Source: Isoetes taiwanensis
Taxonomy: Eukaryota; Streptophyta; Lycopodiopsida; Isoetales; Isoetaceae
Length of the DNA stretch: 64,000 nt
Direction: 5' to 3'
Assembly: GCA_021234155.1 (NCBI GenBank)
Contig: JAJEKV010000041.1
Span: 2,296,447-2,360,446, forward strand
In this document: positions 22,949-52,944 of the stretch, in pieces
How the letters are laid out: each line of letters begins with the position of its first letter
How positions within the stretch are numbered: position 1 is the first letter of the stretch
The notes under the pieces: model-generated
Told to the model about the DNA's origin: nothing
What the model saw: only the letters and a program-made list of their open reading frames with translations
Database searches by the model: none
Position numbers and translations under genes: made by a program

Positions 22949-22970
22949 TTCAGGCAAAAAGTACTGCTAC

Positions 22971-23446: not shown

Positions 23447-23459
23447 GGCTCTGATACCA
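23447..23459 (-). promoter_or_regulatory. Primer-binding site of the pol-less element
   Basis: The plus strand reads GGCTCTGATACCA, which is TGGTATCAGAGCC on the minus strand, two bases from the right LTR. This fixes the element's orientation. Confidence 0.85.
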
Positions 23460-23460
23460 C

Positions 23461-32400: not shown

Positions 32401-33000
32401 GGTGTTGGGAAGGTCACCTTCCGCTTCCACAATCAATAATGGCCCCTCGCTGGTCCAAGGTACTCCATACCTATTATCAAGTCAGATTTGCCAATGCCCA
32501 TTACCTCGGCCCATCATCCGATCTTAATCCCCAGCAAGTCGATGTCAAAGTTGATTCTTTTACCCCGCCGGCAGCCGCTTTATCGCTTCCACTTGCTAAG
32601 ACAACGGGCCTTGGCTTTGACTTTAATGGTTTCAACTTCAACATTTGAACCATTCTTGGAGATGCAAAGTTATGGCTACTTCTCAATCTATTAGGACTAT
32701 AAATGACTTGGCCTTGGCCTTTCCCATCGCGGGAAATTACTTTATACCGCTCTCTCGCTTGCTCAGATCTATTGCGGCAAAGATATGACACTCACCCTGA
32801 ATGTAGTCGCTGGCCTCCTCGCCGCCGCCGCCGCTACCAAAGTGTCCCAATCTCCCAACTCGCTAGGCCAGACTCATGACATATGGGCAGTTCATTGCTC
32901 TATGGCCCGGCTGGAAACACCAAGCAAAGCCGCTTATGCACTCGCTCTTCTCCTTGGGCATGGCTCGCGTAAAGGATCGCGACGCTTTGGAGTAGTTTGA
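29441..33000 (-). pseudogene. Gypsy pol of the inner element (protease, RT, RNase H, integrase, C-terminal domain), broken
   Basis: Read on the minus strand, the blocks in order are: protease remnant SSHNFASPRMVQMLKLKPL (about 32700-32600); RT with [17 protein letters not shown] and [13 protein letters not shown] (about 32050-31900), IFSKIDLRSGYHRIRI and FVIVFFDDILVYS (FFDD box, about 31680-31620); an RNase H segment near 31000-30900; integrase core [20 protein letters not shown] with [12 protein letters not shown] (about 30420-30330); and the integrase C-terminal region KLAPRWAGPLRIIKRVG, NQSYKLELPAHLKIHKVF (about 29720-29600). Frameshifts and stops occur throughout. Confidence 0.85.
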
Positions 33001-33305
33001 CCCTTCCCCGCTTGTCTTTGAAGGACACCGCTTTTCTCCCCGCCGCTTCCCTTGATTGCCACTATATGGGGCTCTAGCCGGGTCCCGGGTCGGGCCGTTT
33101 CTGGGCTGAAACCGCCACGCCTTTGCCTTTTTTATCTTGGTAATGCCGCCGCTTCGCCCACTATTCTCGAGGAGGTCCCGCTCCTTGCAAACTTATTGCC
33201 TTGACTCCGCTCGAGCATCGTTTTGGGTTTATTGCCCTTACAAGCTTTAATGGATCTCCCTCATTCGCACCTTCAATGTAGCTTTCCATCATCGCTGGCT
33301 TTCTC

Positions 33306-34013
33306 CTAACTTTGGCACATACAAAGCTTTAGCCTCATAAATTCCTCTCGTATTTCAGACGATTTGTTGCCTTGCCGCAACCTCAGAACTGCCGTGATCA
33401 TACCGACTTGTGCTCTCTTTGGGACATAATGGCGCTTTGAAGGCTTTAGCAAACTTCTTGAACCCGCAAGCGCCCCTCGCTTAAACCATGAGCCTTGCAT
33501 AGCCCTTCCACCAAATGCGCATGCGCCCTTCAGGTTCATTGCTGCTACCCTCGCTTTATCCTTATCCTTCATACCATAGGCATTGCCGTATTCGCCATCT
33601 CGCTGCTGCAAGCCCTCGCTTCCATGCCTCGACCCGTTTCGCCTCGAGAATTGCTCGAGCTTCCCCGCCTTCCAAACATTTCCCAATGCGTAGTCTACTT
33701 TCTTCCGTAGCCTGAGGTTCTTGTGTCCCTTTGTCGTTCTCCGGTGGTTCCTCCCGCCTTTCGGCCTGCGCCGCCTTGGTTCTGCTTCTTCTTCCTCGGG
33801 ACCTGAGTCTGACTGAAGCTTGAGTCTGAGGAGTCCGAGCCGGGGACCTTCCTCTCTTGCCCTCTTCTTTGTCTCTACTTGTTCTCCGAGCTGATGCTTG
33901 CGGCAGCTTGAGTTGCTACCCACCGAACCTGCTTTCCCTGCCAGGCGGCTAGCAAAGCCTTTATCCGCCGAGGTCCGGCCCTCATTTGGCGAGTATTTTC
34001 TTCTCGGGGTCAT
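33306..34013 (-). pseudogene. Gypsy gag of the inner element, broken
   Basis: A 235-codon frame from 34013, with EYGNAYGMKDKDKARVA and AAMNLKGACAFGGRAMQG then KPSKRHYVPKRAQ, corresponds to the retrotransposon gag core seen better in the outer copy. Local frame changes garble the middle. Confidence 0.65.
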
Positions 34014-34431
34014 TTGTCCAAATTCTTCAAGCAGTGTTTCTTGTCGGGCGTGGCCTGGGCGGGCTCTCGTTTCTCTCAGAAGTTCCCCGCAGCTTGTCGC
34101 TCTCCCAAGGCCAGGCCTCTAGCTGCATACACAAGTGGTTCATATCTACATGGTTAGTTTTCCTTGCTTTCTTGCTTTATTTATGTTTGTTGGCATGGTT
34201 GAGGGGACACAAAATATATCACAAAAACATTTATAGTGCAAGAGAATGTTATATTTATATTTTATATTACACTAATACAAGAACTTGCAACTACTGCTAA
34301 TCATTTCTGTTGATGCCGGTAAGATGGATTATCCTCCAGGAACTTTTTCACTTGGGCTGTTCCCACTGAATGGCCCAAGTTCCTAAGGACATTGGCTGGA
34401 GATCCACCCTGTAATGCTCTTGCTAAATCTT

Positions 34432-35850
34432 CTATTCTGCGGTGGGAGGTATAAGTCGTTGCCACCGGACAGCCTTGCCCGCCGCCCAGAAGGTATGGCT
34501 AAGTCGAAGACGCCGAGTGCTACCGCTCTTTTCACCGTGATTGCATACCGGTGTTAAGGGTAACCGCATGCCCGCCAATCCCGAGAGTGCAATCAGCAAA
34601 CGATACTCCTTCCTCGCCTGGGGTGAATTTATGTGGATAACCGCTATTCTTCCATCCATCGCAAGAGCGGGTGTAATAGCGTAGTGACCGTCGCCGTTGC
34701 AGATAGACGGTCCTCGGCCACTCGGTATCCAGCTCGTGTCCGCTTCCGCTCAAATCATCAACCTCCACCGTGGTGAGCTCCCCCAGTAGTCATTGACTGT
34801 TGCCGAAGCCTCCCCGAGGTCGAATTCGGCCTACCGCCCTATCCCGGGAGGTGCTGCCGGGACGAGCTTGCCGTTAGGATGTTTGAGGTCGCATAACGGA
34901 TCCCCATCTGCTCCTCGAGAGCAAGGAACTCTTCCTCCGCCGGTAGCTTGTTCTCAGCCTTGTCTCCGCTTCCATGATCTCCGCCTCGATGTTGCTGTAG
35001 GCTTGGATGTCGGAGGTAAACTCTCCCGTAAGTGTCGGCTTCCCTTACTTGGAGGGGAAGTCGGATCTCCTGACGGCATGAAGTCGCCCAAGTTCGTTTC
35101 TTCGGAGTTGGTGCAAGCAACTCTTCAGGTCGGTATTCCCTTTCCCCGCGCGACCGGGAGGTTTTGAATGTCGCTAGGAGCGTAAACCTCACCTTCGATT
35201 ATAATGGGAGCTAGGCTTGTGATGCCTAACCCGAGGGGTGGCGCGACTGAGAGTCCGCCGCTTCTTTTCGGGTCTTGCCACTTCCGCCCGCTTGTCGCCG
35301 CTTCCTCCGCTAGGTCGAGCTCAACATCTTCTTCCTCCTCCTCGGATTCCCTCGCTCATCCGAAGTCTTCTTCCTTCCCTTCCCGCCTCCCGCTCAGACT
35401 GCGGTGAGGAGCCGTTGTTCCGGCCGCTACGGCTAATGGATCTACGCCCATGGGGGAATGGAGGTTTCCCCACGATGTTCTCAAGACGGTGGGTGAGAAA
35501 GATTGCCGTGGCGTTGTTGAAAGAGAAGTACTTGGTCCCGCTGGATGCTAGGACCATTGGCTCAAGGTGTGCGGGCGCTTTGTTTGTGAGGTATTTGGCG
35601 CATGTTCGACATCGCCTAATGCCGCCGGCAGTGGACCTGCCTAGGAACAAAATATCCTATACAAGGGGAGTTGCACTAGCTACCGGTTCTACCCTAGCTT
35701 GAAACTCGGCCAGACTCTACTATAAGCCGGGTCGCGTAGGTTGCTTTGACGCCTACCTCCTTCCCCAAGATCCGAAGATTTGGTCGACGCCGGCCTCAAA
35801 GAAGATGAGCGCGGGCGCTGCACTCATCTCCTCGAAATCGAAGTTGCCAT
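34432..35850 (-). pseudogene. Second leader ORF of the inner gypsy element (possible histone fold plus unknown region)
   Basis: An ATG at 35850 starts a frame homologous to 43938-45285. EAGVDQIF matches the outer EADVNDIF. A short intron-like gap (about 35692-35637, GTAGAACC to TAGGCAG) precedes AKYLTNKA and TKYFSFNNATAIFLTHR, which match the outer AKYLTNKAQRLLDY and TKYFSYTRALAIFLSHR. The downstream part retains FLALEEQMGIR and DGRIAVIH...LLIALSGLAG. Several frame breaks. See the outer copy for interpretation. Confidence 0.55.
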
Positions 35851-36160
35851 TGATTAATTGCGTAAGAGGGTAACAAACGGTTGCAAGAGCGCCGTGGAGT
35901 TGGGAAATCGCTAGAAGGGCAGGAGCAGATTTGTAGGGTGCTATCCGAGAAGTGAGGGGTCTATTTATAGAAAAGGGGAAAACCCTAATTTTTGGATGAC
36001 TTGAAAATTTCCTAGGATTGGGTAATTCTAACTTATCCGAGGTCAAAATAGGAGTTTGAGGACTATAGGAGATGCTTGAACAAGGCTAGGTTACCTAAAA
36101 GATGCTATGCAAGAGGTTGAAGGTGACTTTAACAAGTCCCGGTGAAGAATTGGTAAGAGG

Positions 36161-36423
36161 TCTCACAGCCATGCCTCGCTCAATCCTAACTTTTGTTTTG
36201 GCGACGAGGCGCGAAATGTGAGACATCAGTCCCATTTCGATTAAAGGTGTCCAATTTGGGTAAACTAATGGTGTAAGGGTGATGGGCTCATCAAATTAGG
36301 CGTAATCGACCCCTTTATTTGGTCGATTTGAGCTGTTTTGGTCAAGTTTGGGCGAGGTCTCACAGCCTTTGCCTCGCTTCAATCCTAACTTTTGTTTCAA
36401 TGACGAGGCGCTGAAATGTGAGA
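36161..36423 (-). repeat. Hairpin pair 3' of the CENH3-like ORF, inner element
   Basis: Hairpins at 36161-36223 and 36358-36423. TCTCACA pairs with TGTGAGA, and GCCTCGC with GACGAGGC, around an AACTTTTGTTT loop. The stem sequence differs from that of the outer element. Confidence 0.75.
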
Positions 36424-36546
36424 CATCATGTCTCTCGCCCCAAATGTCCTATTTTTCTGAGATAAAAGCTAAAACTTATTAATTTGCTCTAATTACTCAA
36501 GTTTATGTCATCAAAGTAGACAAAATTGCTCTATATTACAAAATTT

Positions 36547-37768
36547 TTAATTATTTACAACAAAAGTTTCTATATTCTCCCTTACGCGGTCGCAAGACTC
36601 ATGTCTTGTCGCATCAAGGTTACCCGCTTGGCGTGGATAGTGCAGGCTGTTGAGTCTTCAAAATGTTGCACTATCTTTGCCTCAGCCGCCTCTTTGCATT
36701 GCCAGCAGCACTGCCTCAGGACTCTAAAGTCCGTTTCTATAGGCTCGCATAACTTCACGCACCAACCGAAGCTTAAGGGGGCAGGGGGATTAGGGAGACC
36801 GAAGTTGCTACCGAAGTGTCTAATCTCCCTTAACGCTCTTCTCTCTACCTCCTTCCTATCCGCTTTCTTCCCCGGGTGGCGGCTTGGGAACCTTGGGCTT
36901 CGTGGTGGCGGCCTTAAGGTTTGCCGCTTCGCTGGTCGCCTCCTCGATGAACTTAACTCGCTTTTTCATAATATTTGTTATAGGCCTCCCATTTCTTCAT
37001 GTAGGCCTCGGCTCCCTCATCTTTCTCTCATAAATCTTCACCTCGCCGGTGACGTAGGCTTCCCTGGGGCGGTCGGGTTGCTTTTTCTATCCCATGCCGT
37101 ACTCGAGGGGGCTTTCAGACTTGGTCTTTTTGGGGTTGCTTTCGTGTCGGGCTGCTTTCAGTAATTTTTGCTCGTCACCGGTTCTTGGAAGAGCTTCCAC
37201 CTCGCAGCGTTAGGGTTGAAGTCCCCATCGAAGAGTCGTCGGAAGGGTTTGGGGGTTCGTGGGGTTGCCGCTCCTTGATGATAATGTTGGGGTTCGCCTC
37301 TTCCTTGGCGGGCAGTCCTTGTTCTCCTTTATGACCTACCTAACTTGCCTTTCGCTTTTTCTTTTCTTTCGCTGGCGGCTTTCTTCCTCTTCTTTTCCTT
37401 TTTCCTCTTTTTGTCCTCCCTTCTCTTCACTTGGCCGTATTTCCGATGAATCTTCTAAGGTCCGCTACCTACTGGCTCCAAACCCGCCACTTGCTCATCC
37501 GCTTGTTCCTGGGCGGATCTCCCGCCTATTTCTTCATACACCTCCCTCGTCCCCGCCGTCCCATGGAGTTTGGTGATGTGGCCTCGCCCTCCACCCGCTG
37601 GTTGAAGACATCGATCAAATCGAGGTGTCTTGCTCTTCGTCAAGGCTTAACGACCCCTTCTTGCTAGCCTCTCTCACGAAGCATCTTCCGAATGATCTCT
37701 CTGCCCCCTGGCTACTGGTGTTTTCGCCTGGGCGACGCTTCCTTTGCGGTCTGTTTGGTTCGGGCCAT
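36547..37768 (-). pseudogene. CENH3-like histone H3 ORF, inner gypsy element, frames interrupted
   Basis: The ATG at 37768 starts MARTKQTAKEASPRRK, identical to the first eight residues of eukaryotic H3 tails (ARTKQTA after Met). A TAG follows, then frame changes through a long Lys/Pro/Ala linker with [10 protein letters not shown]. The fold resumes as [10 protein letters not shown] (N-alpha helix). After a divergent alpha-1 part it shows [14 protein letters not shown] and [18 protein letters not shown] (alpha-2, loop 2, alpha-3 start). EIRHF and VTLMR are typical of plant CENH3 (canonical H3: EIRKY, VTIMP). About 400 codons if repaired, far longer than canonical H3 (about 135), because of the linker. 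Confidence 0.85.
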
Positions 37769-37982
37769 GTTTTACGGATCGTCAATCGGATAAAAGCGAA
37801 AAGATCGCTAAGTTGGGAAGAGCGGATTTCTAGGCTTGGACCTAAAAAATGAGTGGGGTTCTACATCTATTTATAGCTTGGGGAATTTTAGGTCAAAACT
37901 CAAGTTGCTCTGTTTAACATGCTAAGGCACCAATTTATCTAAAACTTATACTTATTTCAGACTTTTTCTTTTTTGGTTCATT

Positions 37983-38429: not shown

Positions 38430-39991
38430 CGTGGACGTCCCCTCACTGTGATATCGGTGCACTCACCGATACAAAACAGGAGTTCTTCCCCACACCAGCT
38501 CCATGCCGTCTGGGGCCCTCCACATATCAACGCACCAACGAAGTCTCTTGGGAAGAGTGAAGGTGTCATTCTACCCCTCCCCTGGGGCCTACCTAGCTCT
38601 TGGGCGTAAAACATACATGTCAATAGCACATACATCAACATCCCGTGACCATCTCGAAGGATGGTCCTCCTCATATCTGCATAGACAAAGATCAGCACAT
38701 CACATAAGGGGATCCTACTCCAAGGCTGGACTCAAAGGATCCTCGACGATTTGGGTCTCCGCAGTCGTCACGCGACATGAATTCATGGCAATGGATTTGG
38801 GGGCATAAGAACATGGCATAGGGTTGTCCACTCCATCCGCCCCTCCCGTGCACACTTTGCGTAGTAGGCTGAAAAGTGTTGGGACTGGCTGTAGCCCAGG
38901 GTGCATAGCGGAAGGGCTATTCTGGGTCATCATCCCAGTCCTCATGGGGCGGTAGGATCACTCCCTCGAGGAGATCTACATCTTTGACTCCAAGGTGACT
39001 AGAGGGCCATTTGCCGCATTCGTGAACCCAACGGAAAGTGTACGCCACTTCCGGGTGTCGAGCCCATGCCTTACCCGCACTTTTCGGTGGTAAGCCATTA
39101 GACCTAGTCACAATGATCCCAGTAGGCTTTACACACCGGGGATCGCTCAAGAGTCAGACATGAATCTCCTTCTTAGCCGGTCCCCCCCTTCACCCACAAC
39201 TGTGTGTGGCTCTTGTACACAGCCGAGGGCGAATCTATGGTGTGCTAGAGAGGCTACTCTAGAGCATTAACTACAAGCTTTAGGGCCTCTACCCCCCTTC
39301 CCAATACAAGGAGTTCACGTAAAATACATCATCCAAATATATCACAAGTAAGAGCTAAAGAACTAGATCTAATCATAGAGTTAGGTTCTTTAGTTAGTGT
39401 CCGAGATCTAAGATCTAGATAGTTACTATGGGCAATTTAATAGTCTAAACCTACCGATTCTATGACTAGAAGACGGTTTAAGTTTATTAAATTGACCAAA
39501 TACCTGATCCTTGAGTGGCTCCTCCCCCTGAGTTCAACCATCCTGGCCGAGCTGATCAATTCGAGGAAACCGATGGCATAACGCTTGGCCATGGGCTGCT
39601 CGGGAGGCGGTTTTGCTCCCCGGGCAGCCAAAACCGAGCTCTAAAACCCTAAGGATCTAAAAAACTAGCAAGCTAGGGTTTTCCTACCCTAAATAGACAT
39701 GGGGGTTTAGGCTAGGGTTTCCAATTACCCAATTTGGCATGTGGGATAATTGGAAAGGCCCCACTTGCCTTTAGTGGCTAGGTGGCAAAATATGCCAACA
39801 TGGAAAGGGTGTGTTCTCATTAATGTGCACATGTGCACATTAATAATATATGAACACTCCTAGTAAGTTGCCCCTAGGGCTACTTACCCTGCTATCCGCT
39901 GGCGTACACGCCAATCGGGTGGGCGGTACGCTGACGTGGCAAAGCACAATGTACGCCCCGGGAGCGATATACGCGGCTGGAACGTCCACGT
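38430..39991 (-). repeat. 5' LTR of the inner gypsy element
   Basis: It aligns with 26877-28444 along its length. Differences are mostly indels of 1-5 bases, many at CAG, CTG or CCG. The primer-site complement GCTCGATACCA lies just left of its start. Confidence 0.85.
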
Positions 39992-41337
39992 ACCCTTAAA
40001 GGCAAGTGGGCCCATTTCCAATTATCCCACATGCCAAAAGGGGATAATTGGAAACCCTAACCAACCCCCTTGTCTATATAGGGAAGGAAACCCTAACTAG
40101 CCCAATTTTCGATTTTAGGGCTTTAGAACTCTGTTTTGGCTGCCTCAACAAATTAAAACCGCATCCCATCACCGGGAGAATTGCATCCTTAGTTTCCCTT
40201 GATTCGGGAAAGGCCTCACAGGATGCACGAGCTCAGGTCAGGAGGAGCCCCTCAAGGATCAGGTATTTGGCCAATTAGATAGTCTAAACCCTATTTTAGT
40301 CATTGAATCAGTAGGTTTAGCCTATTAGATTGCCCATAGCAGCCCTCTAGATCTCTAGATAGCAGATTCTAACTAAAGAACCTAACTCTATGTTGTAGAT
40401 TAGATCTAGTTCTTTAGTTCTCTGTGAAGTATATGGATGATATATCTCTCATGAGCTCCTTGTATTGGGAAGGGGGGTAGAGACCTAAAGCTTTGTAGTT
40501 GATGCTCCTAGAGTAGCCTCTAGCACACTCAGAGATTCGCCTCGCGGCACAAGAACCACACCGGTTGTGGGTGAAGGGGCCAGATCGGCTTAGAAGGAGG
40601 TTCGTGTTCGACTTTGAACGATCCCTATGGTGTGTTAGTGCTACCAGGGATCATTGTGACTAGGTTAATGGCTTACCACCGAAAAGCGGTAAGGCATGGG
40701 CTCGACACTGCGTGAAGTGGTGCACACTTTCCGCTGGGTTCACTAACACGGGCAAAGGGCCCTCTAGTCACCTTGAGTCAGCATGTAGACCTCCGGAGGG
40801 AGTGATCCCTACCTGCCCCATCGGAATCGGGAGATGGAACCCGTGAATAGCCCTTTGGCTATGCATCCCGGCTGGCTACAGCCAAAGTCCCAACACTTTT
40901 CAGCCTACTCGCAAAGTGTGCACAGAGAGGGGCGGATGGAGTGGACAACCCTAAGCCATGTTCATATGCCCAAATCCATTGCCATGAATCCGCGCCCGCA
41001 ATGAACTCGAGACCCAAGCCGCCGGGCCATCCCCTTGAGTCCGAGCCTTGGGTAGGATTCCCTATGTGATGTGCCGATCTTTGTCTATGCAGAGACCGAG
41101 GACCATCCTTCGTGATGGTCATATGATGTTGATGTATGTGCTAACGACATGTATGTTTACGCCTCCGCAGCTAGGTAGGCCCCGAGGGACGGGTGTAATG
41201 ACCCTTCCACTCTTTCCCACCGGAACCCGCCACGGTGCGCGGTCATGTGGAGGGCCCCGTGATAGCATGGAGCTGGTATGGGGATGAACTCGCTTGTGTA
41301 CGGTGAGGGCACCGTGATACCAGTAGGGGACGCCACA
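39992..41337 (+). repeat. 5' LTR of the outer gypsy element, second part
   Basis: Resumes the LTR at CCCTTAAAGGCAAGTG and ends GACGCCACA, followed by the primer site. Contains the TATA box and telo-box cluster at 40050-40095. Confidence 0.9.
40050..40095 (+). promoter_or_regulatory. TATA box with flanking telo-box motifs in the LTR
   Basis: TCTATATA at 40073-40080 has GAAACCCTAA just before (about 40051) and just after (about 40087). AAACCCTAA (telo-box) is a known element of plant promoters, including those of histone and ribosomal-protein genes. The same arrangement is at about 51680-51725 in the 3' LTR. Confidence 0.55.
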
Positions 41338-41351: not shown

Positions 41352-41540
41352 TATGTTCTTGGAGACCAAGAGCAAAGCACCGCCATGTTCCCAAAGAGCA
41401 CTAACTTGATAGGATCCTTAAACCCTAAAAATGGGAAAATTTTTCTCATTTTTGTAGTTTATGCTAAGCTAGTAAATGCTTAAAATGAATAGAAATGTAA
41501 AAAAGATTAAAAATTAATGAGCCAACATCCGTGTAGGTGG

Positions 41541-41787
41541 TCTCACACGCCGCTACCAGATGTGATTTCTACATTCTAGAAACGGGCCGGGCTAACGGTG
41601 AGACATTCAAATTTTGACACCAAAAAGTTGTAAATTACAAGAAAATACCTTGATAATTCTAATTTTAAGCTAAGAATTAGTAGATTTAGCATGTTACATG
41701 TTAATTTAATAGTGGGCCCCACCATGTCTCACACGTCGCCAGACAGGGTTTCTAGATTCTAGGAATCGGGCTGGGCAACGGTGAGAC
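41541..41787 (+). repeat. Hairpin pair 5' of the CENH3-like ORF, outer element
   Basis: Hairpins at 41541-41604 and 41727-41787. The outer stem TCTCACACG pairs with CGGTGAGA and the inner stem GATTTCTA / TTTCTAGA with TAGAAA / TAGGAATC. Start spacing 186 bases. Confidence 0.8.
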
Positions 41788-41973
41788 CTTGCTTAATTAG
41801 GTGTTTTTAGGTGCTTTAGACAACCCAAAAGGTAGTTTAAAAGTTGACCTAAAATTGGCCCTATAAATAGACCCGACCCCTCCCATTTTTCCCCTGTTCT
41901 TCCCTAGAACTTCGCCAGGACTATCAAGACGATCTTCCGGGCGCTTTAGCTCCGATCGACAAACCGAAAGATG

Positions 41974-43246
41974 ATGGCCCGCACAGCGTGACTGCAAAGC
42001 AAGTAGTCAAGCGATCCTCCGGCGCCACTGCCCTCTTTCACAGGATTCTTCGAACGCCTTCTCCACGACGCATCTAATCTTCGCCGAAGCGAGGAAGCTG
42101 TGGTCGGACCGAGTTTAATTACACAGAGCTCTTGGAGGATGACCGGCCGATGTCATGAACCGCATCCCCGACGGTAAATTGCGCTGAAGAGGAAAGAAGC
42201 GCAGCTAGGAGCAACACCGTGAGGACGCCAACCCACGTGAAGAGCAGAGGGAACAAAGGACCCATCAACAGCCCCAGAGCAACCCCTGTGCTGAGATCCA
42301 CCCGCAGGGAGGAGCAGGGAAGAGAGGAGCAGCACCGAACTCACCCCGAAGAAGAGGCCGACAGACGCCGGGCCCACAAGCACGGCCAAGGAGCCGGCCG
42401 GAGCAGAGGACAAAGAGTCGGGAAGACGACCACTACAGCCGGACCCAAGAAGAGGAGGGCCAAAGCCGAAAGGCAGGCAAGAGGAAGCCGTAAAGGTCGG
42501 GAAGCGAGCCAAGGTCCCGGCCATCAACGAAGCCGCCGGGAGGGGAGACCTCGCCCACCACCGACGACTCGGATGGAGACTACGTGCCGGGCGCAGACGG
42601 GGCAAGCTCTTCAAAGCCCCCGGTCGTAGAGGAAGAGGTCCCGGAGCAGACAGCCCAAGAAGGGGAGGAGACCGGACAGCTAGCGAAGCCCCCACCTTTT
42701 CCGACGTGGGATAGAGTCAAAGCCCCGCGGCCGCGAACGGGAAGCATATGTGATAGACCCCCAAAGGTCTATCGAAGAGGATCAGGGAACACAACGCTTA
42801 TATGGCAAGGTGGGAGGCGATAACGATATTACCGTGAGCACCGGTGAGAATGATTGAAGGCGACACCGACTAAGAGCCGCATTAATCGAAGCCCCTCCAC
42901 CAAAGCCCAAGCCTCCCCGAAAGCACCCGTGGAAGAAGCGGAGCAAGAAGAAGAAGTCGGAAGATTGGGGCACTCAAGGAGATCCGCCACTTCCGTAAGA
43001 GTTACTGGACTCTGATCCCCGATCCGCCGATTCCAGCGTTTGGTCCGCTGTCATACAAAGAATACAACACGCATATGCGCGTGACCGACGAGATCTTCTT
43101 TGTGTTTATAAGAGGCGCCGGCACATAGTAAAGCATTTTGAAGATTCAACGGCCCGCACGGGTGCACGCCAAGAGGGTTACCCTCATGAGGGGATATGTA
43201 TCTTGCCGGGCACATCAAGGGTGAACGCCTTGAGTTTTGTAAATAA
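41974..43246 (+). pseudogene. CENH3-like histone H3 ORF, outer gypsy element, frames interrupted
   Basis: The ATG at 41974 reads MART, then in another frame TAKQVVKRSSGATA, paralleling an H3-type tail start. A long Arg/Lys/Glu-rich linker follows, ending in KKRSKKKK (about 42935). The fold starts ALKEIRHFRKSYWTLIP (about 42970-43020), identical in pattern to CENH3 ALKEIRHF...LLIP. After a poorly conserved stretch come VKHFEDSTA (about 43125-43150), HAKRVTLMR and, in the next frame, DMYLAGHIKGERLEFCK ending at TAA 43244-43246, which lines up with the H3 C-terminus (D-x-x-LARRI-x-G). At least three frame changes. The product would be about 420 residues, with the histone fold in the last 100. 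Placed between the 5' LTR and gag. Confidence 0.85.
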
Positions 43247-43379
43247 TCGGAAAAATTTTGTTAATATAAAGAAAATTTTGTGTAAATAAAGTCTCAAACC
43301 CCGTTTAAATAGGTCAAGATATCGATCCCTAGCTTTTGTTTTAATTAAATTGGAGTTTTGAGCAAAAATTAAGACGATG

Positions 43380-43637
43380 TCTCACACGTCGCGCCAGATG
43401 ATTTCTAGATTTTAGAAATCGGGGGGTTAACGTAGAGACCATGCCCAAAAATGCCCAAAACAGCTCCAAATCGAACAAGTAAGGGGTCAATTCTGCCTAA
43501 CTCGATGAGTTTAGTGGAATTACAGCCTTAGATCACTTAAATTGAGTGAGCCTAGCCCAATTGGGACCCATGTCTCACACGTCGCGCCAGGACAGATTTC
43601 TACATTTTAGAAATCGGTCTGGGCGCAACGTGTGAGA
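43380..43637 (+). repeat. Hairpin pair 3' of the CENH3-like ORF, outer element
   Basis: Hairpins at 43380-43438 and 43573-43637. The second is the best preserved of all: TCTCACACGT-CGCGCC-AG pairs with CT-GGGCGC-AACGTGTGAGA, enclosing AGATTTCTA and TAGAAATC. Confidence 0.85.
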
Positions 43638-43937
43638 CCCCGTACCATTTCTTCACCAAATGATCTCCAAACTGTACAATAGGTTCAGTAGCTGTTCTTA
43701 GCATGCTCAAACTCTAGAAATAGTCTTCAAACTTGCAATTGCATCCCTTAATAGATCAGAATTGCCTAATCTCAGTAAAATCTAGGTCATCCAAAAATTA
43801 GGGTTTTCCCCTTTCTATAAATAAGTCCCCCATTTCTCATTTGGCACCCTGCAAATTTGCTCCCCACTGCTTAGGCGATCTTTCAGCTCCCTGAGGCGCT
43901 TCTGCATCCGTTTGATACTCCCTTCCTTGCTAGATCA

Positions 43938-45285
43938 ATGGCCACTGCTGATTTCGGGCGATGGTACAGCGCCAGTGCCCATGCTGCTGAGGCGGATGTC
44001 AACGACATCTTCCAAGTCTTTGTGAAAGAAATCGACATCCAAGCTACGCTAAATGCAACCCCGGCCTTATAGGCGGTGAAAAGAATTTCAAGCTAGGTAG
44101 GACCCTCCCTTGTTCAAGTTCCCCCTGCATAGATACTTTGTTCCCCTCGCCCATCCCTTCAGCAGCCTTTGGGCGACGCCCCCAACATCGCCAAGTACTT
44201 GACTAACAAGGCGCAGAGACTACTCGACTACATGGTCCCCGACACCCAACAGACCAAGTACTTCTCTTACACAAGAGCCCTAGCCATCTTCTTATCCCAC
44301 CGCAGAACCCGATGGGGCAACCTCTATCCCTCCGATGGAGGTAGACCCCATAGCAGTCCCAAGCAGAAGAGCGTATGCCGCGGTAAAAAGATCAAGGAAC
44401 GGGAAGCAAGAGAGGATGAGGAGGAGTCGGACTCATTTAAGGATACACCTGAGCTCGACTTTATCGTAAGAACGGCGCCAAGCGTGAGCAGAGCCGATCA
44501 ACTTCGAAAGCGCAGCGGTGGCATCGAAGTCGCCTCCCCACTCGGGCTAGGCATCACAAGCCTAGCCCCATCATCATTAACGAGGAGAGGAGTATCTACT
44601 CCTCAGCGACATCCTAACCTTCCCCGCGGGAGAGGGAGCTCGTGTTGGACTAATCGCTTCCACCAATCCGCGGGGGCAGACCGACATGGACGACTTCATC
44701 GCCCGTGGAGCCCTCGCACTTTCCGCTGTAAGTGAGGGAGGCCGACACCTACACGTGGGAGACGACCTCCGATATCCGTGCCTACAAAGAAGATCGTGCA
44801 AATGATGGACGAAGCCGGAGTCGCCAACAAGAGGAGGGAGTTCCTCCAAGAACAGATGGGGATCCGCGGGAAGACCACGAGCATCCTAATGCCGAAGTCC
44901 TTCGACATCACCCCGCCAAAAGGGGAGAAGGAATCGACCTCGTGAGGCTCGACCGCACGCATTGAAGACTACGTGGGAGCTCACCGGGTTGAGGTCGACG
45001 AGCACGGGCAAGCGTAGCCGGGAGGCCAAACAAGCGGAGAAGCCGGCGACACACAACGACAGTCGCCAGTACTACTTGCCGCTGCCGAGGGATGGGAGAA
45101 TAGCGGTAATTCACCGCAAGTTCAGTCCCAGAGGCGAAGAAGGAGTGTTCATGCTGATTGCACTCTCAGGCTTCGGCAGGCATGCTCGAATAGCAACAAA
45201 TGTCGACTATGCTGTCCCGGTCAAGAGGGCAATGGCACTCGACCTCTTCGACGACCGCCATACCCCACCGACGCCGCGAGATTAG
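43938..45285 (+). pseudogene. Second leader ORF of the outer gypsy element; possible H2B-like histone fold plus unknown C-terminal region
   Basis: The ATG at 43938 starts MATADFGRWYSASAHAAEA. EADVNDIFQVFVKEI resembles H2B alpha-1 (IF-x-V spacing). An intron-like gap 44097-44165 (AG|GTAGG to CAGCAG) precedes NIAKYLTNKAQRLLDY, which shares I, L, A, RL and Y at the spacing of H2B alpha-2 (DIFEKLAQEASRLARY). KYFSYTRALAIFL then shares S, A and L with H2B TITSREIQTAVRL. The rest (FLQEQMGIRGK, DGRIAVIH, LIALSGFGRHAR) is unrecognised but conserved in the inner copy. The histone-fold call is tentative. A helical protein with no histone relation is the alternative. Confidence 0.45.
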
Positions 45286-45738
45286 CGATGGATGCGGCCC
45301 TTACATCCCAATCAGGGTAGAAGACTGGTGAGAGCCATCCGGGGAGGCTCGTCGGCAAGCATCATCAGGAACTTGGGTCACTTTCGGTAGGGGCGGCCCA
45401 AGTTAAGAGGTTTCTTGAAGACAACCCGTCTTTACCGAAGCGATTTCAAGACTAGTTAGACTCTTGATCCCGGAGACTTTTTGTATCCGGAAATATTATA
45501 TGATATATGAATATAAATCCTATTGCACTTTAAATGCTTTGTTGATGTATTTTTGCCCCACAACTATACCAACAAACATAAACAATGCAAGAGAACAAAT
45601 GAAACTAATCATATAGCCATGAATTGCTTGTGGTATGCAGCCTAGAGGCCTAAACGCAGAGGAACGACAATCATGTAGATCTTATAGAAGAGCAAACCCC
45701 ACCCGCACTACACCCAGGCAAGGAACCTATTTGAAGAT

Positions 45739-46677
45739 ATGGAACCCATGACCCCAGAGGAGGAGATAGCCCGGATGAGGACGGACCGAGCGGATAAAGG
45801 CATTACCGTCCGCAAAGCGGAGTGGGTTCGGTGGGCAACGCCGATTGCCGCAAGCATCAGCTTCGGGGGCGTGAAAAGACAAGAAGAGGAGCAAGAGAAG
45901 GAGATCCTCCAGCCGGAATCTTCCGACTCAAGTTCGTGACGACCGACTCGAGGAAGAGGAAGAACGTGCTCAGAACCAACAGATGGAAGGCGAGGAATAC
46001 CCCGGAAGGGCGACAAAGAGATACCAGGGCCTCGACTACCGTAAGAAGGTAGATTCCGCGACTTGGGCAATGTATGGAAGGCCCGGAATCGGAACAGTTC
46101 CTCGAGGGGAAACAAAGTCGATTGGAAGCAGAGGCATGGCTGGGACGAAATGAGCGAAAAAATGGAAATGCTTATGGCATGAAGGATAAGGACAAAGGCA
46201 GAGTTGCAACAGCCAACTTGAAAGGAGCCGCTCGGATTTGGTGGAAGGGTTATGCAAAGGCACATGGCTTAAGCAGGGATGCTTGTAAGTTCAGAAAGTT
46301 TGCTAAAGCCTTCAAGCGCCATTACGTTCCGAGGGAACATAAGTCCAAAGATGATGCAGTTAGCTTTTACAAAGTTGCGCAAAGAAGGCAACAAATCAGT
46401 CAGAAATATACAGAGGAATTCATGAGGCTAAGGGTCATGCGTCTCGAAGTTGGGAGAGAAGCATGCAGTAGAAAGCTATATTGAGGGGCTGAATGAGGAG
46501 ATCCGCAAGCTTGTGAGGGCAATAAACCCTAGGACAGTATCAGAAGCGGAATCCAAGGCTATAAGCTTGCAGGGGTCAGGACCTCAGAATAGCGGGCAGA
46601 AGCAGCAGTACTTCCAGGATAAAGGCAAGGCGACAGGAAGCTATAGCCCTGTGGCAGCTATCCAGTCCAAATTTTAG
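45739..46677 (+). pseudogene. Gypsy gag, outer element
   Basis: It starts MEPMTPEEEIARMRTDRADKG. After a frame change the gag core follows: NAYGMKDKDKGRVATANLKG, ARIWWKGYAKAHGLS, FKRHYVPREHKSKDD, YTEEFMRL, then YIEGLNEEIRKLVRAINPRT in another frame. This is the structural capsid-like domain of gypsy elements. Two or three frame shifts. Confidence 0.8.
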
Positions 46678-46685
46678 AGCCCCAT

Positions 46686-47264
46686 ATGGTGGGGAACCGG
46701 GAAACAAAGGAGAAGCAGGTGTCCTTCAAGGACAAGCAGGAGGGGTCAAACTACTCCAAAGCAGTGCGATCCTTTTTGCAGGCAATGCCCAAGGAAAAGA
46801 GGCAGGAGTGCATAGAAAAGCAACTGTGCTTCAGGTGCTTCCAGCCAGGCCATAGGACAGCAAACTGCCCCTACGTCATGAGTGCAGCTCTAGCGGAGTT
46901 GGGAGATTGGGCCTACGGTCCGGACGACGACGGCGAAGAGGCCCGCGACTACATTCAGGGTGAGTGTCATATCTTTGCCGCAATAGATACAGAGCAAGCA
47001 GAGAGCCAGTATAAGGTAATTTCCACAGTAGGGAAGGCCAAGGCCAAGTCCTTCATAGTCTTGATAGACTCAGGAAGTAGCCATAACTTTGCATCCCCCA
47101 GAATGGTTCAAATGTTGAAGTTGAAGCCGCTAAAGTCAAAGCCAAGACCCGTTGTCTTAGCAAGTGGTGCAAGGCGGGGGCGGGCAAGAGAATTAACTTC
47201 GACATCGACTTGCTGTGGATTAATATCCGGATGGGGCGGAAGTAATGGGCATTGGCAAGTATGA
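46686..47264 (+). pseudogene. Zinc knuckle and aspartic protease of the outer gypsy element
   Basis: CFRCFQPGHRTANC near 46830-46870 is a complete CCHC knuckle. FIVLIDSGSSHNFASP near 47050-47095 is the retroviral-type aspartic protease active-site region (D-S-G). It is open for 192 codons, then shifts frame. Confidence 0.85.
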
Positions 47265-48570
47265 CTTGATCATAGGAATGGAGTACCTTGGGCCAACAGG
47301 GGCCATTATTGATCGTGGAAAGCGGAAGGTGACCTTCCCAACGCGGACGGCAAGATCATTGAGATAACAAAAAAGGAAGTTGTTCCCATCATGCAATTGT
47401 ATGTCTTCTAAACTACCGTTCAAGTGCATCAAGAGTGAGCAAGTGGCATACATCTTCAAGCTTGAGATTAGTGAGCCAAAATCGGAAGGAAGCAAAGAAG
47501 ACAAGGTGCTCAAACAAGTTGCCAAGCAAGTAGCTAAGGCGATCACGGAGTTCCATGATCTCTTTCGGATGAGATCAAGCAGCTCCCTCCATATAGGGGA
47601 GTTGAGTGCGAGATTGCACTCGAAGCGGGAACAAAGCCAACGAGCAAGGCTCCATATAGAATGACAACGCAGAATTGTCCGAGCTAAAGAAAGAAGATTT
47701 TGCAGGAGCCGCTTGACCTAGGTTTTATTAGACCTAGTGTTTCGCCATTTGGGCGCCCATTCTCTTCGTTAAGAAGAAGGATGGCGATCTAAGGATGTGC
47801 ATAGACTATAGGCGGTTGAACAAGCACACCATTAAGAACAAGTACAGCTCCCGGATCGGATGACTTGATGGATCAGCTCCAAGGTGCAAAGATCTTCTCC
47901 AAAATCGACTTTAAGGTCAGGTTATCATCAGATCAGGATAAAGGAAGAAGATATCCATAAGACCGCCTTCTAACGCGGTATGGGCACTATGAGTTCACAG
48001 TAATGCCTTTCGGCTTATCGAATGCCCCATAACGTTCATGAGGCTCATGAACGACATCTTCAGGGAGTGTTTAGACACCTTTGTGATTGTTTTCTTTGAT
48101 GACATTTTGGTGTATAGCAGATCCCTTGAAGAGCACATACAACACTTGAGAAGAGTCTTTGGAGAAGTTGAAGAGGCACCGGTTATGCACGCCAAGTTGT
48201 CGGGTGCCACGCAAATGTAGAAGGTGGAGTATCTAGGTCATGTGATCTCAAAGCCAGAAGGCATCTCGACGGATCCCCGCAAAGATTGAAGCCGTCATTC
48301 AAAGGGCCGGGCGCCAAGAATGTGCATGAAGTCAAGTTTCGCCTAGCCTGTTGTGGTACTACAGAAGTTCAGAAAGAACTTTGTTAAGATAGCAGCCCCG
48401 CTAATGGACTTGACGCGGGCGGAGAAAGTGAAAGATTGGGCAGAGCATTGGCACAAGAAAGCCCAAGGTGGTTTGAATTGTTGAAGGAAGCTTTAACAAC
48501 AGCCCCGCCTTTAACCCCACGGACCGGGAGAAAGATAAGCTTGTAGCAACAGATGCAGTAAGATAGCTAC
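47265..48570 (+). pseudogene. Gypsy reverse transcriptase, outer element
   Basis: Fragments in several frames: [20 protein letters not shown] (about 47765-47825), IFSKIDFK (about 47890), then MRLMNDIFRECLDTFVIVFF and DDILVYSRSLEEHIQHLRR (about 48038-48150) with the FFDD catalytic box. Numerous 1-2 base indels. Confidence 0.85.
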
Positions 48571-48577
48571 AGGTGCA

Positions 48578-49297
48578 GTGCTTATGCAAGAAGAGCGTGT
48601 GGTAGCGTATGATTCCAGGAAGATGAACGACGCCGAGACGCGCTACCCAACGCACGATCAGGAGTTGCTTGCGGTTGTCAGGGCATTAAGAATATGGAGG
48701 CATTATCTCTTGGGAAGGAAGTTCCAATTGGATACCGACCATCAGAGCCTCCAATATGTATTCACGCAACCACACCTTAATCTGAGGCAGCGGAGATGGA
48801 TGGAGTTCCTCGAAGAATATGACTTTGATATAGTCTACAAGCCGGGGAAGCTCAATGTGGTAGCAGATGCGCTTTCAAGGCATCCCCTGACAACTAGAGT
48901 ACATTGCAATGCAATTTCGACGCTCTTCAGTGACTTTGGTAAGAGGATTGAAGAGTCCTTGCCAACGGATGTGGATTTCAGGGAAGTATGGGCAAGCCTT
49001 TCTAAGGAGGCTAGAACAGATAAAGAGCGGGAGGCCTTCAAGCATTATAAGAAGGAAGGCAACCTGTTATACCATAAGAACAAGTTGTGCGTACCCGAAT
49101 CATCAGGTGTAAGGAAGTTGATCCTCCATGACACGCACAACAGCCCAATAGCTGGCCATGCGGGATTCATGAAAACATATTTCAAAGTGCGCAGCAGCTA
49201 TTATTGGCCAGGAATGAAGAAGCAAATAGCTCGCTACATCAAGGAATGTCAGCTATGCCAGCAGACGAAGGCGGAGCAGCCAATTCTGGGGCATTAG
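48578..49297 (+). pseudogene. Gypsy RNase H and integrase zinc-binding domain, outer element
   Basis: An open 239-codon stretch. RNase H-like part: VVAYDSRKMNDAETRYPTHD, ELLAVVRALRIWRHYLLG, DTDHQSLQYVF, NVVADALSR. Integrase N-terminal HHCC: H in LILHDTHNSPIAGHAG and CQLCQQ. The best preserved pol segment in either copy. Confidence 0.85.
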
Positions 49298-50434
49298 AGC
49301 CATTAAGCGGTGCCAAACGCTAAGTGGGAGGTAATCAGCATGGACTTCATCACAGGACTCCCAAGGACAGCAAGAGGGAAGGATGCCTTGATGGTAGTGA
49401 TCGACAAGTTGTCTAAGATGGCACATTTTGTGCCTTGCAGGACCACAGATACAGCCATGGATACAACAAAGCTCTTCACCAAAGAGATCTTCAGGCTTCA
49501 TGGCATGCCAAGGGAGATCATCTCCGGCTGAGGGATCCGAAGTTCATGGCGCTTTTGGCAAGACCTCTTTGCGACAATCCGCACGGCTATCCATGAGCAC
49601 GGCATATCATCCTCGACGGATGGCCGCACGGAGCGGACCAACAGGGATTTTAGAGGACATGCTACTGAAACTATGTCCGGAATAAGCAAAGTATGTGGGA
49701 AGAATTTATTCACTTGGTGGAGTTTGCATACAATAGCACCAAGCGGGAATCATCCCAAATGTCGCCGTTTATGATCAATTACGGCTATCGATTGCCTAAC
49801 TCGGATACTTGGCACAACCCCGTGTCAAAAGTGGAAGTTTCGCAGCGAGATGTTGGCCGATATGCGGCAGCTTGTGGAAGAAGTTCGAGGTTATCCGCTA
49901 GCGCAAGAAGTCGTCCGGAAGAGCATCGCCGACAAGCATCGAGCAAAGAAGAGAGTTCAAAGTTGGAGATGATGTTTGGCTCAAGATCAAGGTGAAGCAG
50001 CGGTAAGCTCGGGATCGGGAATTGCAAGAAGCTTGCTCCAAGGTGGGCTGGACCTTTCGAATAGTCGAGAGTAGGTAATCAATCCTACAAGTTAGACTTG
50101 CCAGCACACCTAAAGATTCATAAGGTCTTCCACGTGAGTCTGTTGAAGAAGCATACTCCAAATCCAGACGAAGTCTTGGATTCTCCAACGTTGTTGGAAA
50201 TGACGGAGGAGCAACTGGAAATAGTTCCGTAATTGATTCTTGATAAAGCTTTCAAGAAAACGAGGAGATCGAGAATTCCTCCGGTATTTGGTCAAGTGGA
50301 AACACTTACCAGTGGGAAGACGGCGATGGGTACTTAAGAAAGATTTAGTAAAGCAAGTACCCACGGTTTATGGAGCAATGGGACGGCAAGGTCATCTCCA
50401 GAAGAAATCGGCTCAGGCATGTCGATTTGTGTAG
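49298..50434 (+). pseudogene. Gypsy integrase core and chromodomain, outer element
   Basis: The core starts [20 protein letters not shown] with [12 protein letters not shown] and KEIFRLHGMPREIISG. Later frames have MWEEFIHLVEFAYNS. The C-terminal end has REFLRYLVKWKHLPV followed by WVLKKDLVKQVP (about 50265-50365), a chromodomain pattern (YLVKWK-x-LP...W...DL). The chromodomain places the family among chromoviruses. Stops and shifts throughout. Confidence 0.75.
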
Positions 50435-51298
50435 GTTAATTCTGGTGTAGTTAAGATTAATCTACGCATGCAACCTAGGCTTAGTATGGGTCGCATGCGT
50501 TGTTACCGATGATGGGACCACTACGGTGATCTCTAGGGCGTGGTGTAATGTCAATGTAGGCATGACCGTTTCGTTTGGGCGAGTGGAAGGTAGATTAGAA
50601 AGTCCACTGTCCCCACGGAAGTAGGCGACCTCGAGAGAAAGGAGGTCATGAAGGAATGCATTGATAGGGAAAGCACCTTTAGCCCCATATATGCTTTGAT
50701 AGGAGGAATCTATCCCAGGCCCCCCACACGAGAAGGATATCCTCCATTTGGGTAACTAGAGGTGTAGGCATGAGCGCATATAGGCATATATTTTGTCTCA
50801 TGACCATAATGGAAGATTCACCCTCTTCCCACGTAGGAGATTAGCCATGCATCCATGTAGATAGGTGGGGTGGTCACCATATAACCAAAATTTTATTAAT
50901 AATTAAATGATACTAACGTAGTGTCGACCACAGAGCCGAAGAGAGCTCGGGAGGGCAAGGAGGTCGAGAACTTTGAAGACTTGCAACACAAATTTTTGTT
51001 GGAATGTGTTGCAAGGAATGAAGAGTACCTCGGGACGTAATTTTAAAATTTTGATAAACTTAATCGTAATGTTAAGTTAATTTTGGAGTAACTGTTTAGT
51101 AATGTTGTGAATTGATAAGTTATTTCATAATATAATGATGTGATAATGTCATAAAAATATTACCTTAAGGTAATTTTAATAAATGTGTAGGAATTATAGT
51201 AGTAATCGTATGTATCAGGGTGATTGCAGGTTACGATGATCCCAAGGTGGGGAGACCCACGATCTTTGCGGACAAACATCATTTCAAGGTGGGGAGAA
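50435..51298 (+). other. 3' untranslated region and polypurine tract of the outer gypsy element
   Basis: Non-coding, homologous to 28445-29440 in reverse. The polypurine tract AAGGTGGGGAGAA lies at 51286-51298, directly before the LTR. Confidence 0.75.
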
Positions 51299-52944
51299 TG
51301 TGGCGTTCGGCCACAAAAAGATATCGCCCGGGGCGTATACCGCATCTTGCTGCCCACGCCGCATTAACACCACGCCACTCCGGTGACGACGGTACGCGCA
51401 GCGTGTAGCCGGTGAGTAGCCCTAGGGGCAACTTGCCAGAAATATGTGCAACTATTAATGTGCACATTTTCCAATGTACACATTAATGTGGGCACACATT
51501 TCCAAGTGGACACTTCATGCCAAGTGGGCCACACCCATAGGTGCAATTAATGTGCACATTTTCCAATGTACACATTAATGAGGGCACACATTTCCATGTG
51601 TGCACATTTGGCCACCTAGCCCTTAAAGGCAAGTGGGCCCATTTCCAATTATCCCACATGCCAAAAGGGGATAATTGGAAACCCTAACCAACCCCCTTGT
51701 CTATATAGGGAAGGAAACCCTAACTAGCCCAATTTTCGATTTTAGGATCCCAGACTCTGCCTGGGAGAATTGCATCCTTAGTTTCCCTTGATTCGAGCGT
51801 CTCAGCAGGATGGTCGAGCTCAGGTCAGGAGGAGCCCCTCAAGGATCAGGTATTTGGCCAATTAGATAGTCTAAACCCTATTTTAGTCATTGAATCAGTA
51901 GGTTTAGCCTATTAGATTGCCCATAGCAGCCCTCTAGATCTCTAGATATGGATTCTAACTAAAGAACCTAACTCTATGTTGTAGATTAGATCTAGTTCTT
52001 TAGTTCTCTGTGAAGTATATGGATGATATATCTCTATGAGCTCCTTGTATTGGGAAGGGGGGGTAGAGACCTAAAGCTTTGTAGTTGATGCTCCTAGAGT
52101 AGCCTCTCTAGCACACTGTAGATTCGGCCTGTGCACAAGAACCACACCTGGTTGTGGGTGAAGGGGCCAGACTGGCTTAGAAGGAGGTTCGTGTTCTGAC
52201 TCTTGAACGATCCCTATGGTGTGTTAGTGCTACCAGGGATCATTGTGACTAGGTCTAATGGCTTACCCCGAAAAGCGGGTAAGGCATGGGCTCGACACCG
52301 TGAAGTGGTGCACACTTTCCGTGGGTTCAATCGAATCACGGGCAAAGATGGCCCTCTAGTCACCTTGAGTCAGCATGTAGACCTCTGGAGGGAGTGATCC
52401 CTACCTGCCCCATCGGAACTGGGGAGATGGAACCCAGGAATAGCCCTTTTGGCTATGCATCCGTGAGGCTGGCTGATCCAGTCCCAACACTTTTCAGCCT
52501 ACTGCGCAAAGTGTGCACGGGAGGGGCGGATGGAGTGGACAACCCTAAGCCATGTTCATATGCCGCCCAAATCCATTGCCATGAATTGCATGCGCAATGA
52601 ACTCACGGAGACCCAAGCCGTCGGTCATCCCCTTGAGTCCGAGCCTTGGGTAGGATTCCCTATGTGATGTCTTTGATCTTTGTCTATGCGGATATCACGG
52701 AGGACCATCCTTCGTGATGGTCATATGATGTTGATGTATGTGCTACTGACATGTATGTTTACGCTTCCGCAGCTAGGTAGGCCCTGAGGGAGACGGGGTG
52801 CAATGACCCTTCCACTCTTCCCACTGGAACCCGTCACGGGTGCAGTGTCATGTGGAGGGCCCTGTATTAGCATGGAGCTGGTATGGGGGATGAACTCTTG
52901 TTTGTGTACGGTGAGGGCACCGTATACGAGTAGGGGACGTCACA
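51299..52944 (+). repeat. 3' LTR of the outer gypsy element
   Basis: 1646 bases from TGTGGCGTTCGG to GACGTCACA, intact and followed by the AGTTG target duplication. It serves as the uninterrupted reference for the split 5' LTR. Confidence 0.92.

What the first reader, a model, noticed from the sequence alone, without database searches (positions are those of the whole stretch)
41974..43246. A Ty3/gypsy chromovirus leader encodes a centromere-type histone H3 (CENH3-like)
Seen: between the 5' LTR and gag, the frames read [35 protein letters not shown] and DMYLAGHIKGER in order at histone-fold spacing. Known: plant CENH3 has ALKEIRHF...LLIP and VTLMRKD, where canonical H3 has ALREIRKY...LLIR and VTIMPKD. 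Inference: the element captured a CENH3 gene, perhaps to integrate into, persist in or interfere with centromeric chromatin. A chromodomain integrase in the same element makes a chromatin-targeting role attractive. I know of no described retrotransposon with a CENH3 gene, but could not search.
Basis: partly seen in the sequence, partly recalled or inferred. Interest (0 to 1): 0.97.

Follow-up and report, generated by a model that had tools for sequence, protein, structure and literature searches.

The report
Retrotransposon family carrying its own histone
A numerous family of jumping genes in a plant genome carries its own gene for a histone, the kind of protein that packages DNA, and natural selection has kept that gene intact, which suggests that the parasite uses it to shape chromatin.

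Summary
Confirmed, and larger than reported. Element B holds a decayed histone H3-family ORF (ATG at 41974, core 42970-43228). Elements A and C of the window hold it too, so it is no insertion in one copy. In the host genome (1.658 Gb; fits Isoetes taiwanensis) a degenerate 33-nt pattern for AKRVTLMR[QK]DM has 909 exact matches, control 0. Six of ten fetched relatives carry the whole ORF (403-451 codons): an H3 N-terminus (MARTKQTARK), a long charged tail, and a fold with CENH3-type residues (RHF, LLIP, EALL, VTLMR) but H3-length loop 1. It lies between 5' LTR and gag-pol of a chromodomain-bearing chromovirus. Copies differ mostly at silent sites (core dN/dS 0.008-0.086), so selection acts on the protein. 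A second branch of the lineage carries another H3, fused to a novel domain. The type-1 leaders also have two promoter-like modules (twin palindromes about 190 bp apart, TATA box). Descent from CENH3 is favoured, not proven; a centromere role is untested. My literature searches found no retrotransposon-encoded histone. The mechanism is inferred: a self-supplied nucleosome variant for targeting or anti-silencing.

The parts
39987..41337 (+). Element B, 5' LTR (ends approximate)
41540..41604 (+). B palindrome 1
41726..41787 (+). B palindrome 2
41861..41869 (+). CTATAAATA, possible TATA box, 113 bp before the histone ATG
41974..43243 (+). B histone ORF, broken by stops and frameshifts; starts MART
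42970..43228 (+). B histone-fold region
43379..43439 (+). B palindrome 3
43572..43638 (+). B palindrome 4
43815..43823 (+). CTATAAATA, 123 bp before the ORF2 ATG
43938..45450 (+). B ORF2, broken; end approximate
45700..51310 (+). B gag-pol region, broken (approximate)
51613..52944 (+). Element B, 3' LTR (approximate)
38434..39986 (-). Element A, 5' LTR (approximate)
36580..37768 (-). A histone ORF, broken; MARTKQTAK at 37768; fold 36836-36580
37868..37876 (-). CTATAAATA before the A histone ATG (108 bp)
36357..36424 (-). A palindrome 3
36160..36224 (-). A palindrome 4
35962..35970 (-). CTATAAATA before the A ORF2 ATG (120 bp)
34330..35850 (-). A ORF2, broken; end approximate
28444..34120 (-). 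A gag-pol region, broken (approximate)
26877..28443 (-). Element A, 3' LTR (approximate)
22179..22403 (-). Element C histone-fold region, broken
22971..23249 (-). C palindromes 1 and 2 (23184-23249, 22971-23037)
21744..22008 (-). C palindromes 3 and 4
19416..24739 (-). Element C with LTRs 19416-20685 and 23459-24739; no gag-pol found

Best explanation
SHOWN: a lineage of Ty3/gypsy chromoviruses in this genome carries a histone H3-family gene between the 5' LTR and gag-pol as a regular gene of the element. The type-1 protein has the first ten residues of H3 (Lys4 and Lys9 kept), a long charged insert-like tail, a conserved block before the fold, and a complete H3-type fold. Selection has kept the protein while silent sites diverged, up to saturation. 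INFERRED: it is made from the element's own internal promoter, pairs with host H4, and is deposited as a nucleosome variant on the element's DNA, or on the chromatin where the element inserts or must stay expressible. The kept H3(1-10) tail offers readers of K4 and K9, including the element's own chromodomain integrase, a normal mark. The long tail, the Lys-to-Arg changes in the fold and the changed chaperone motif make it a histone that the host's machinery handles differently. So it most likely serves target choice and/or anti-silencing. My odds: about 0.95 for the identity part, about 0.35 for this mechanism (lowered from 0.4 when I saw that part of the H3 tail may survive before the fold).
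For: Three copies in the window; 909 exact pattern matches genome-wide, control 0. Six of ten fetched type-1 loci have the whole ORF. Pfam Histone 9e-27, 2.1e-28, 1.4e-28, 2.5e-27 on L048, L041, L044, L049. Fold dN/dS 0.008-0.086 in 14 of 15 pairs of six copies, the other saturated. pN/pS 0.14 N-tail, 0.40 middle tail, 0.14 pre-fold block, 0.10 fold. Against L044 the fold of the other five differs at 1, 1, 3, 9 and 15 residues; the same numbers of random nucleotide changes give means of 18.1, 16.7, 13.6, 28.8, 40.5 and minima of 9, 10, 8, 20, 29 in 2000 trials. Sites that in H3 contact DNA or partner histones (recalled) R69, R72, R83, H113, K115, R116, T118, D123, L126 are kept in all six; K56R, K64R, R63P in all six; K79R and K122Q in five of six; positions 87-90 read EALL (4) or EMLL (2). 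Chromodomain 1.4e-10 in the L044 element. Group I chromodomains, prevalent in non-seed-plant elements, bind H3K9me (PMC12786077, passage).
Against: No expression, protein or localisation data; no nucleosome tested; no structure predicted. Targeting and anti-silencing are analogies. HMMER aligns GGRPTKQQTLK... before the fold weakly to H3 GGKAPRKQLATK..., so the rest of the H3 tail may be displaced by an insert rather than lost. One of the six intact copies (L047) has Ile where the others start with Met. An H4 query of the genome, meant as a control, did not complete (nine calls, 110-127).
Confidence: 0.57

Rival explanations
1. CENH3 mimic: the histone derives from CENH3, uses the CENH3 chaperones and enters or disturbs centromeric chromatin, to the element's gain in inheritance or insertion.
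For: RHF, LLIP, EALL, VTLMR; tree support 93/93 and 89/92 with plant CENH3.
Against: Short loop 1 and H3 N-terminus; H3-side trees not rejected; PDB best matches are H3; listed copies look dispersed; references recalled, host CENH3 not found.
Confidence: 0.2
2. Packaging protein: the histone condenses the element's cDNA or RNA in the particle or pre-integration complex.
For: Very basic tail and fold with H3 DNA-contact arginines kept; every copy line keeps it.
Against: The exact H3 N-terminus and the H4-pairing surface would not be needed for mere packaging (inference).
Confidence: 0.15
3. Regulator: the histone-fold protein, alone or with ORF2, binds the palindromes and drives the leader promoters, as NF-Y-type histone-fold factors do.
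For: Twin palindromes before both leader genes with compensated changes; weak CBF/NF-Y profile hits below cut-off.
Against: The Pfam Histone profile fits far better (94-100 bits against 17); the H3 tail is not explained.
Confidence: 0.1
4. Passive capture: a host histone fragment carried along without function.
For: The window copies A, B, C are all broken.
Against: Low dN/dS and intact ORFs in unlinked copies.
Confidence: 0.02

Closest known systems
Chromoviruses of non-seed plants (Tcn1-like and others; PMC2864245, passages)
   Same: LTRs, gag, protease, RT, RNase H, integrase with chromodomain
   Different: Extra leader genes, one a histone. In that paper 'histone' occurs once, about modifications read by chromodomains. 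Whether this lineage is Tcn1-like was not tested.
LTR elements with additional ORFs, such as an orchid Gypsy lineage with an AlkB demethylase (PMC12786077, passages; PMC7264820, passages)
   Same: Accessory gene carried by an element, in some cases of host origin and acting on its own control
   Different: No histone reported there: the word occurs 0 times in PMC7264820. Most described extra ORFs lie between pol and 3' LTR.
Single viral histones: bracovirus H4 with a 38-residue tail extension; H3s of some DNA viruses (PMC9145170, passages; PMC5423620, search listing)
   Same: A mobile or viral genome with one histone, in one case with an added tail, thought to enter host nucleosomes
   Different: DNA viruses, H3 fold 73-87% identical to possible hosts; here 52 of 89 residues, in a retroelement with hundreds of copies. 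'retro' occurs 0 times in the review.
VANC anti-silencing proteins of VANDAL transposons (PMC10398659, PMC5735166; search listing with starts of abstracts)
   Same: Element-encoded protein that counters silencing and acts through non-coding parts of the element
   Different: VANC is no histone and VANDAL no retroelement; anti-silencing is only a hypothesis here
CRM centromeric chromoviruses (PMC3059260, search listing)
   Same: Chromovirus tied to CENH3 chromatin
   Different: Carries no CENH3 gene (recalled)

Membership tests
Ty3/gypsy chromovirus | Paired LTRs, tRNA primer site, gag, PR, RT, RNase H, INT | tested here: met
   LTRs; primer site TGGTATCAGAGC; domains (complete set in L034)
Ty3/gypsy chromovirus | Chromodomain at the end of integrase | tested here: met
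   PF00385 in type-1 L052 (1.4e-10) and type-2 L034 (6.3e-8); not seen in the broken window pieces tested
Histone H3 | Core histone fold above the curated cut-off over its length | tested here: met
   94.2-100 bits against 26.4 on L041, L044, L048, L049; 42.6 on window A
Histone H3 | N-terminus ARTKQTARK | tested here: met
   exact in 3 of 6 whole ORFs with Met; L047 exact but Ile for Met; L048 and L049 one change each
CENH3 | CENH3-type residues in helix N, alpha-2 and alpha-3 (RHF, LIP, EALL, VTLM) | tested here: met
   against recalled plant CENH3s
CENH3 | Loop 1 longer than in H3 | tested here: not met
   the fold aligns with host H3 over 89 columns without gaps
CENH3 | N-terminal tail unlike H3 | tested here: not met
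   MARTKQTARK
CENH3 | Descent from CENH3 | tested here: inconclusive
   support 93/93 and 89/92; H3-side trees p-AU 0.057-0.084
CENH3 | Sits at centromeres | not testable with these tools
   needs ChIP or imaging
LTR element with conserved additional ORF | Extra ORF present and conserved in many copies | tested here: met
   909 pattern matches; 29 of 150 scored matches in open frames of 400 aa or more without a stop (hand count); dN/dS
Anti-silencing factor (VANC-like role) | Raises expression of its own family | not testable with these tools
   no expression data

The most novel reading that the evidence does not exclude
The element builds its own chromatin: it supplies an H3 variant with a CENH3-type chaperone motif and an H3 K4/K9 tail; its leader genes have promoters with twin palindromes about one nucleosome repeat apart that place or exclude such a nucleosome; and its integrase chromodomain reads the methylated tail of that same histone, so the parasite both supplies and reads its landing mark. 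Two branches of the lineage carry different H3 versions, perhaps separate captures, pointing to a long contest over nucleosome identity.
Probability: 0.2. Interest if true: 0.98.

Novelty: new variant of a known kind. Interest (0 to 1): 0.92.

Why it matters
Histones are thought of as host property that transposons must obey. Here a retrotransposon lineage carries its own H3-family histone as a constrained gene in hundreds of copies. That makes directly testable whether a transposon can change nucleosome composition to aim its integration or escape silencing. It is also a natural experiment on which parts of H3 (K4/K9 tail, chaperone motif, core lysines) matter when a histone serves a parasite, and it may bear on why CENH3 evolves fast.

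Tried and rejected
Chance or artefact: rejected. Insertion in one copy only: rejected (A and C hold it too). Passive pseudogene: rejected. My early idea that the end of ORF2 resembles the RsmH methyltransferase: the ORF2 frames tested have no Pfam match, no homologue and no PDB match; dropped. Homologues outside this genome: the protein search with element A's frame gave 4 proteins of 35 candidates, all of H3 type; viral-contig scans gave none. Host CENH3: a recalled rice core fragment returned 150 scored matches of 4627 candidates; I read four: two type-2, one H3-like piece, one type-1; not found. H4 control: not completed.

Rows dropped: 3 of 16 palindromes (two degenerate ones of A, one of C). 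L042, L043, L046 (fold intact, N-terminus shifted) and L050 (broken) from the six-copy dN/dS. L021 (short) from the 36 type-2 pairs. Of L016-L030 five were not read (L017, L018, L024, L025, L029; the frames printed for them are of the wrong strand).

Full report
WHAT THE WINDOW HOLDS. Self-comparison shows two neighbouring LTR elements in opposite orientation. A is on the minus strand, with LTRs about 26877-28443 and 38434-39989, 89% identical. B is on the plus strand, with LTRs about 39987-41337 and 51613-52944, about 91%. A smaller one, C, is on the minus strand, with LTRs about 19416-20685 and 23459-24739, 91%, and no gag-pol found. The finding lies in the leader of B. Its peptides are all there, in three frames. 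Pfam sees nothing in the separate B frames. A frameshift-tolerant alignment of an H3 core to the DNA scores 149 (A), 94 (B) and 112 (C) against shuffle means of 28.5-30.3 with standard deviations of 3.4-4.0 (100 shuffles each; z 29.5, 17.1, 24.9). The best other place on either strand of the 64 kb scores 43. One frame of A (X at stops) passes the Pfam Histone cut-off and finds H3.3 in the PDB at 1.5e-10. A also opens with MARTKQTAK.

AGE OF THE GENE IN THE ELEMENT. A and B are about 82% identical over gag-pol but only 42-59% per 150-column step over the histone ORF, and C matches A only in short pieces. All three have the gene at the corresponding place, so their common ancestor most likely had it.

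GENOME-WIDE. The genome has 1,658,258,908 bases in 1110 contigs. That text holds the word histone 0 times. A query with A's 127-aa frame gave 150 scored matches of 7753 first-look candidates, all at E 3.6e-32 or better, the query itself included; 29 of the 150 lie in open frames of 400 aa or more without a stop in the match (hand count). A 33-nt degenerate pattern for AKRVTLMR[QK]DM has 909 exact matches, 454 and 455 on the two strands; the backwards control has none (a few other residues also fit the pattern). On the listed part of contig C907 there are 17 in 31.6 Mb, the same density as in the genome, so no clustering is seen there. Of ten type-1 loci fetched, six carry the whole ORF (L041, L044, L045, L047, L048, L049; 403-451 codons; L047 with Ile for the first Met), three have an intact fold with a shifted N-terminus, one is broken.

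THE PROTEIN. N-terminus MARTKQTARK, as in H3, in L041, L044 and L045; L047 differs only in the first residue; L048 and L049 have one change each. Then a fast-evolving charged middle (pN/pS 0.40), a conserved block YPAWDRKK...EAYMKKWEAYSKYYEENRV (0.14), and the fold [89 protein letters not shown] of L044 (0.10). Pfam Histone 1.4e-28 for L044. Host H3 cores of L001-L015 (15 of 15) differ among themselves at one position, and the element's fold aligns with them without gaps. Arg69, Arg72, Arg83, His113, Lys115, Arg116, Thr118, Asp123 are kept in all six; Lys56 and Lys64 are Arg and Arg63 is Pro in all six; Lys79 is Arg and Lys122 Gln in five of six (the roles of these sites are recalled). The H3 tail beyond residue 10 does not follow the N-terminus. 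HMMER aligns GGRPTKQQTLK before the fold weakly to H3 GGKAPRKQLATK, so a long insert may have split an H3 tail. Positions 87-90, the H3 chaperone site (PMC9145170, passages), read EALL or EMLL; recalled rice CENH3 has EALL.

SELECTION. Among the six, 14 of 15 pairs give a fold dN/dS of 0.008-0.086; the other is saturated. Random placing of the observed nucleotide differences to L044 would change 13.6-40.5 residues on average; 1-15 are changed, below the lowest of 2000 trials in each of five cases. The copies are on different contigs or far apart, so selection acts on the element's protein through rounds of transposition.

THE ELEMENT. The L044 element has LTRs 94.6% identical (L051 3299-4780, L052 7966-9451), the primer site TGGTATCAGAGC, the histone ORF, ORF2 (broken there), protease, RT, RNase H, integrase, Tf2-type SH3 and chromodomain (1.4e-10). 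A second branch (type 2) has 70-76% identical pol DNA and carries a different ORF of 453-459 codons from its first Met: a novel N-terminal domain, a linker and an H3 core with RKY, LIRR, VTIMPKD (L022, L026; Histone 1.1e-43 and 2e-43). In L033/L034 it lies inside an element with LTRs 94-97% identical and gag, protease, RT, RNase H, integrase and chromodomain. Type-2 folds show dN/dS 0 to 0.136 where it can be computed among 36 pairs. ORF2 of the two branches is distantly alike (22% over 143 aa, E 2e-5 for a single comparison); L036 has it in an open frame of 506 codons, about 462 from its first Met, without Pfam or PDB match.

ORIGIN. With recalled references, type 1 is one clade (100/99) that joins plant CENH3 (93/93). 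Type 2 (80/85) lies on the other side with H3, where human CENP-A and yeast Cse4 also fell. A smaller set gives 89/92, but trees with type 1 on the H3 side (p-AU 0.074 and 0.057) or with types 1 and 2 together (0.084) are not rejected. Raw similarity to host H3 and to rice CENH3 is about equal. Long branches and 89 columns advise caution. So 'CENH3-like' is right as a description and unproven as descent.

PROMOTER MODULES. In A, B, C and the L044 element the leader has two pairs of imperfect palindromes, members 186-213 bp apart where both could be placed: one pair before the histone ORF (A's is degenerate), one before ORF2. They share CTCACA...TGTGAG ends; 9 of 17 predicted pairs show compensated changes among 13 sequences. 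In the two type-2 leaders that I scanned no such palindrome was evident. CTATAAATA occurs five times in 18000-54000, four of them 108-123 bp before the ATG of a histone ORF or ORF2, the fifth in C; the L044 element has it at 112 and 123 bp. This suggests that both leader genes have promoters of their own (inference).

LITERATURE. Searches (full text of 5.39 million open papers) listed no paper on a retrotransposon-encoded histone, judged by titles and starts of abstracts. Reviews of additional ORFs and of viral histones do not mention one in the passages and term counts that I saw. Subscription papers and preprints are not covered.

JUDGEMENT. The identity and constraint of the gene are solid. 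The mechanism is not shown. The best reading is a self-supplied nucleosome variant serving targeting or anti-silencing; centromere mimicry, particle packaging and a regulator role remain open.

Noticed in passing
41540-41604, 41726-41787, 43379-43439, 43572-43638 (B); 36160-36224, 36357-36424 (A); 21744-22008, 22971-23249 (C); L044 36-293, L052 69-336: Twin palindromes about one nucleosome repeat apart before each leader gene, nearly identical within the L044 element, diverged between elements with arms kept complementary; they look like co-evolving binding sites or structured promoter parts.
   Followed up: partly
43938-45450 (B), 34330-35850 (A), L036:1804-3321, L052:644-2187: A second leader gene, ORF2, without match in Pfam, PDB or the protein collection for the frames tested; open in L036.
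   Followed up: partly
L022:484-1860, L026:502-1860, L033:8077-9480: A second branch of the same chromovirus lineage whose H3 core is fused to a novel N-terminal domain (MPRFKLTVDLKK...), open frames of 468-474 codons.
   Followed up: partly
19416-24739: Element C is a relative without gag-pol that still has the decayed histone gene and palindromes.
   Followed up: partly
38434-41337: Elements A and B stand head to head, their 5' LTRs abutting at about 39986-39989.
   Followed up: no
12312-14054: Copia-type reverse transcriptase in a 580-codon open frame (RVT_2 5.6e-80).
   Followed up: no
8657-9907: Open frame of 416 codons without Pfam match.
   Followed up: no
59763-60199: Direct repeat of about 185 bp at 95% identity.
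   Followed up: no
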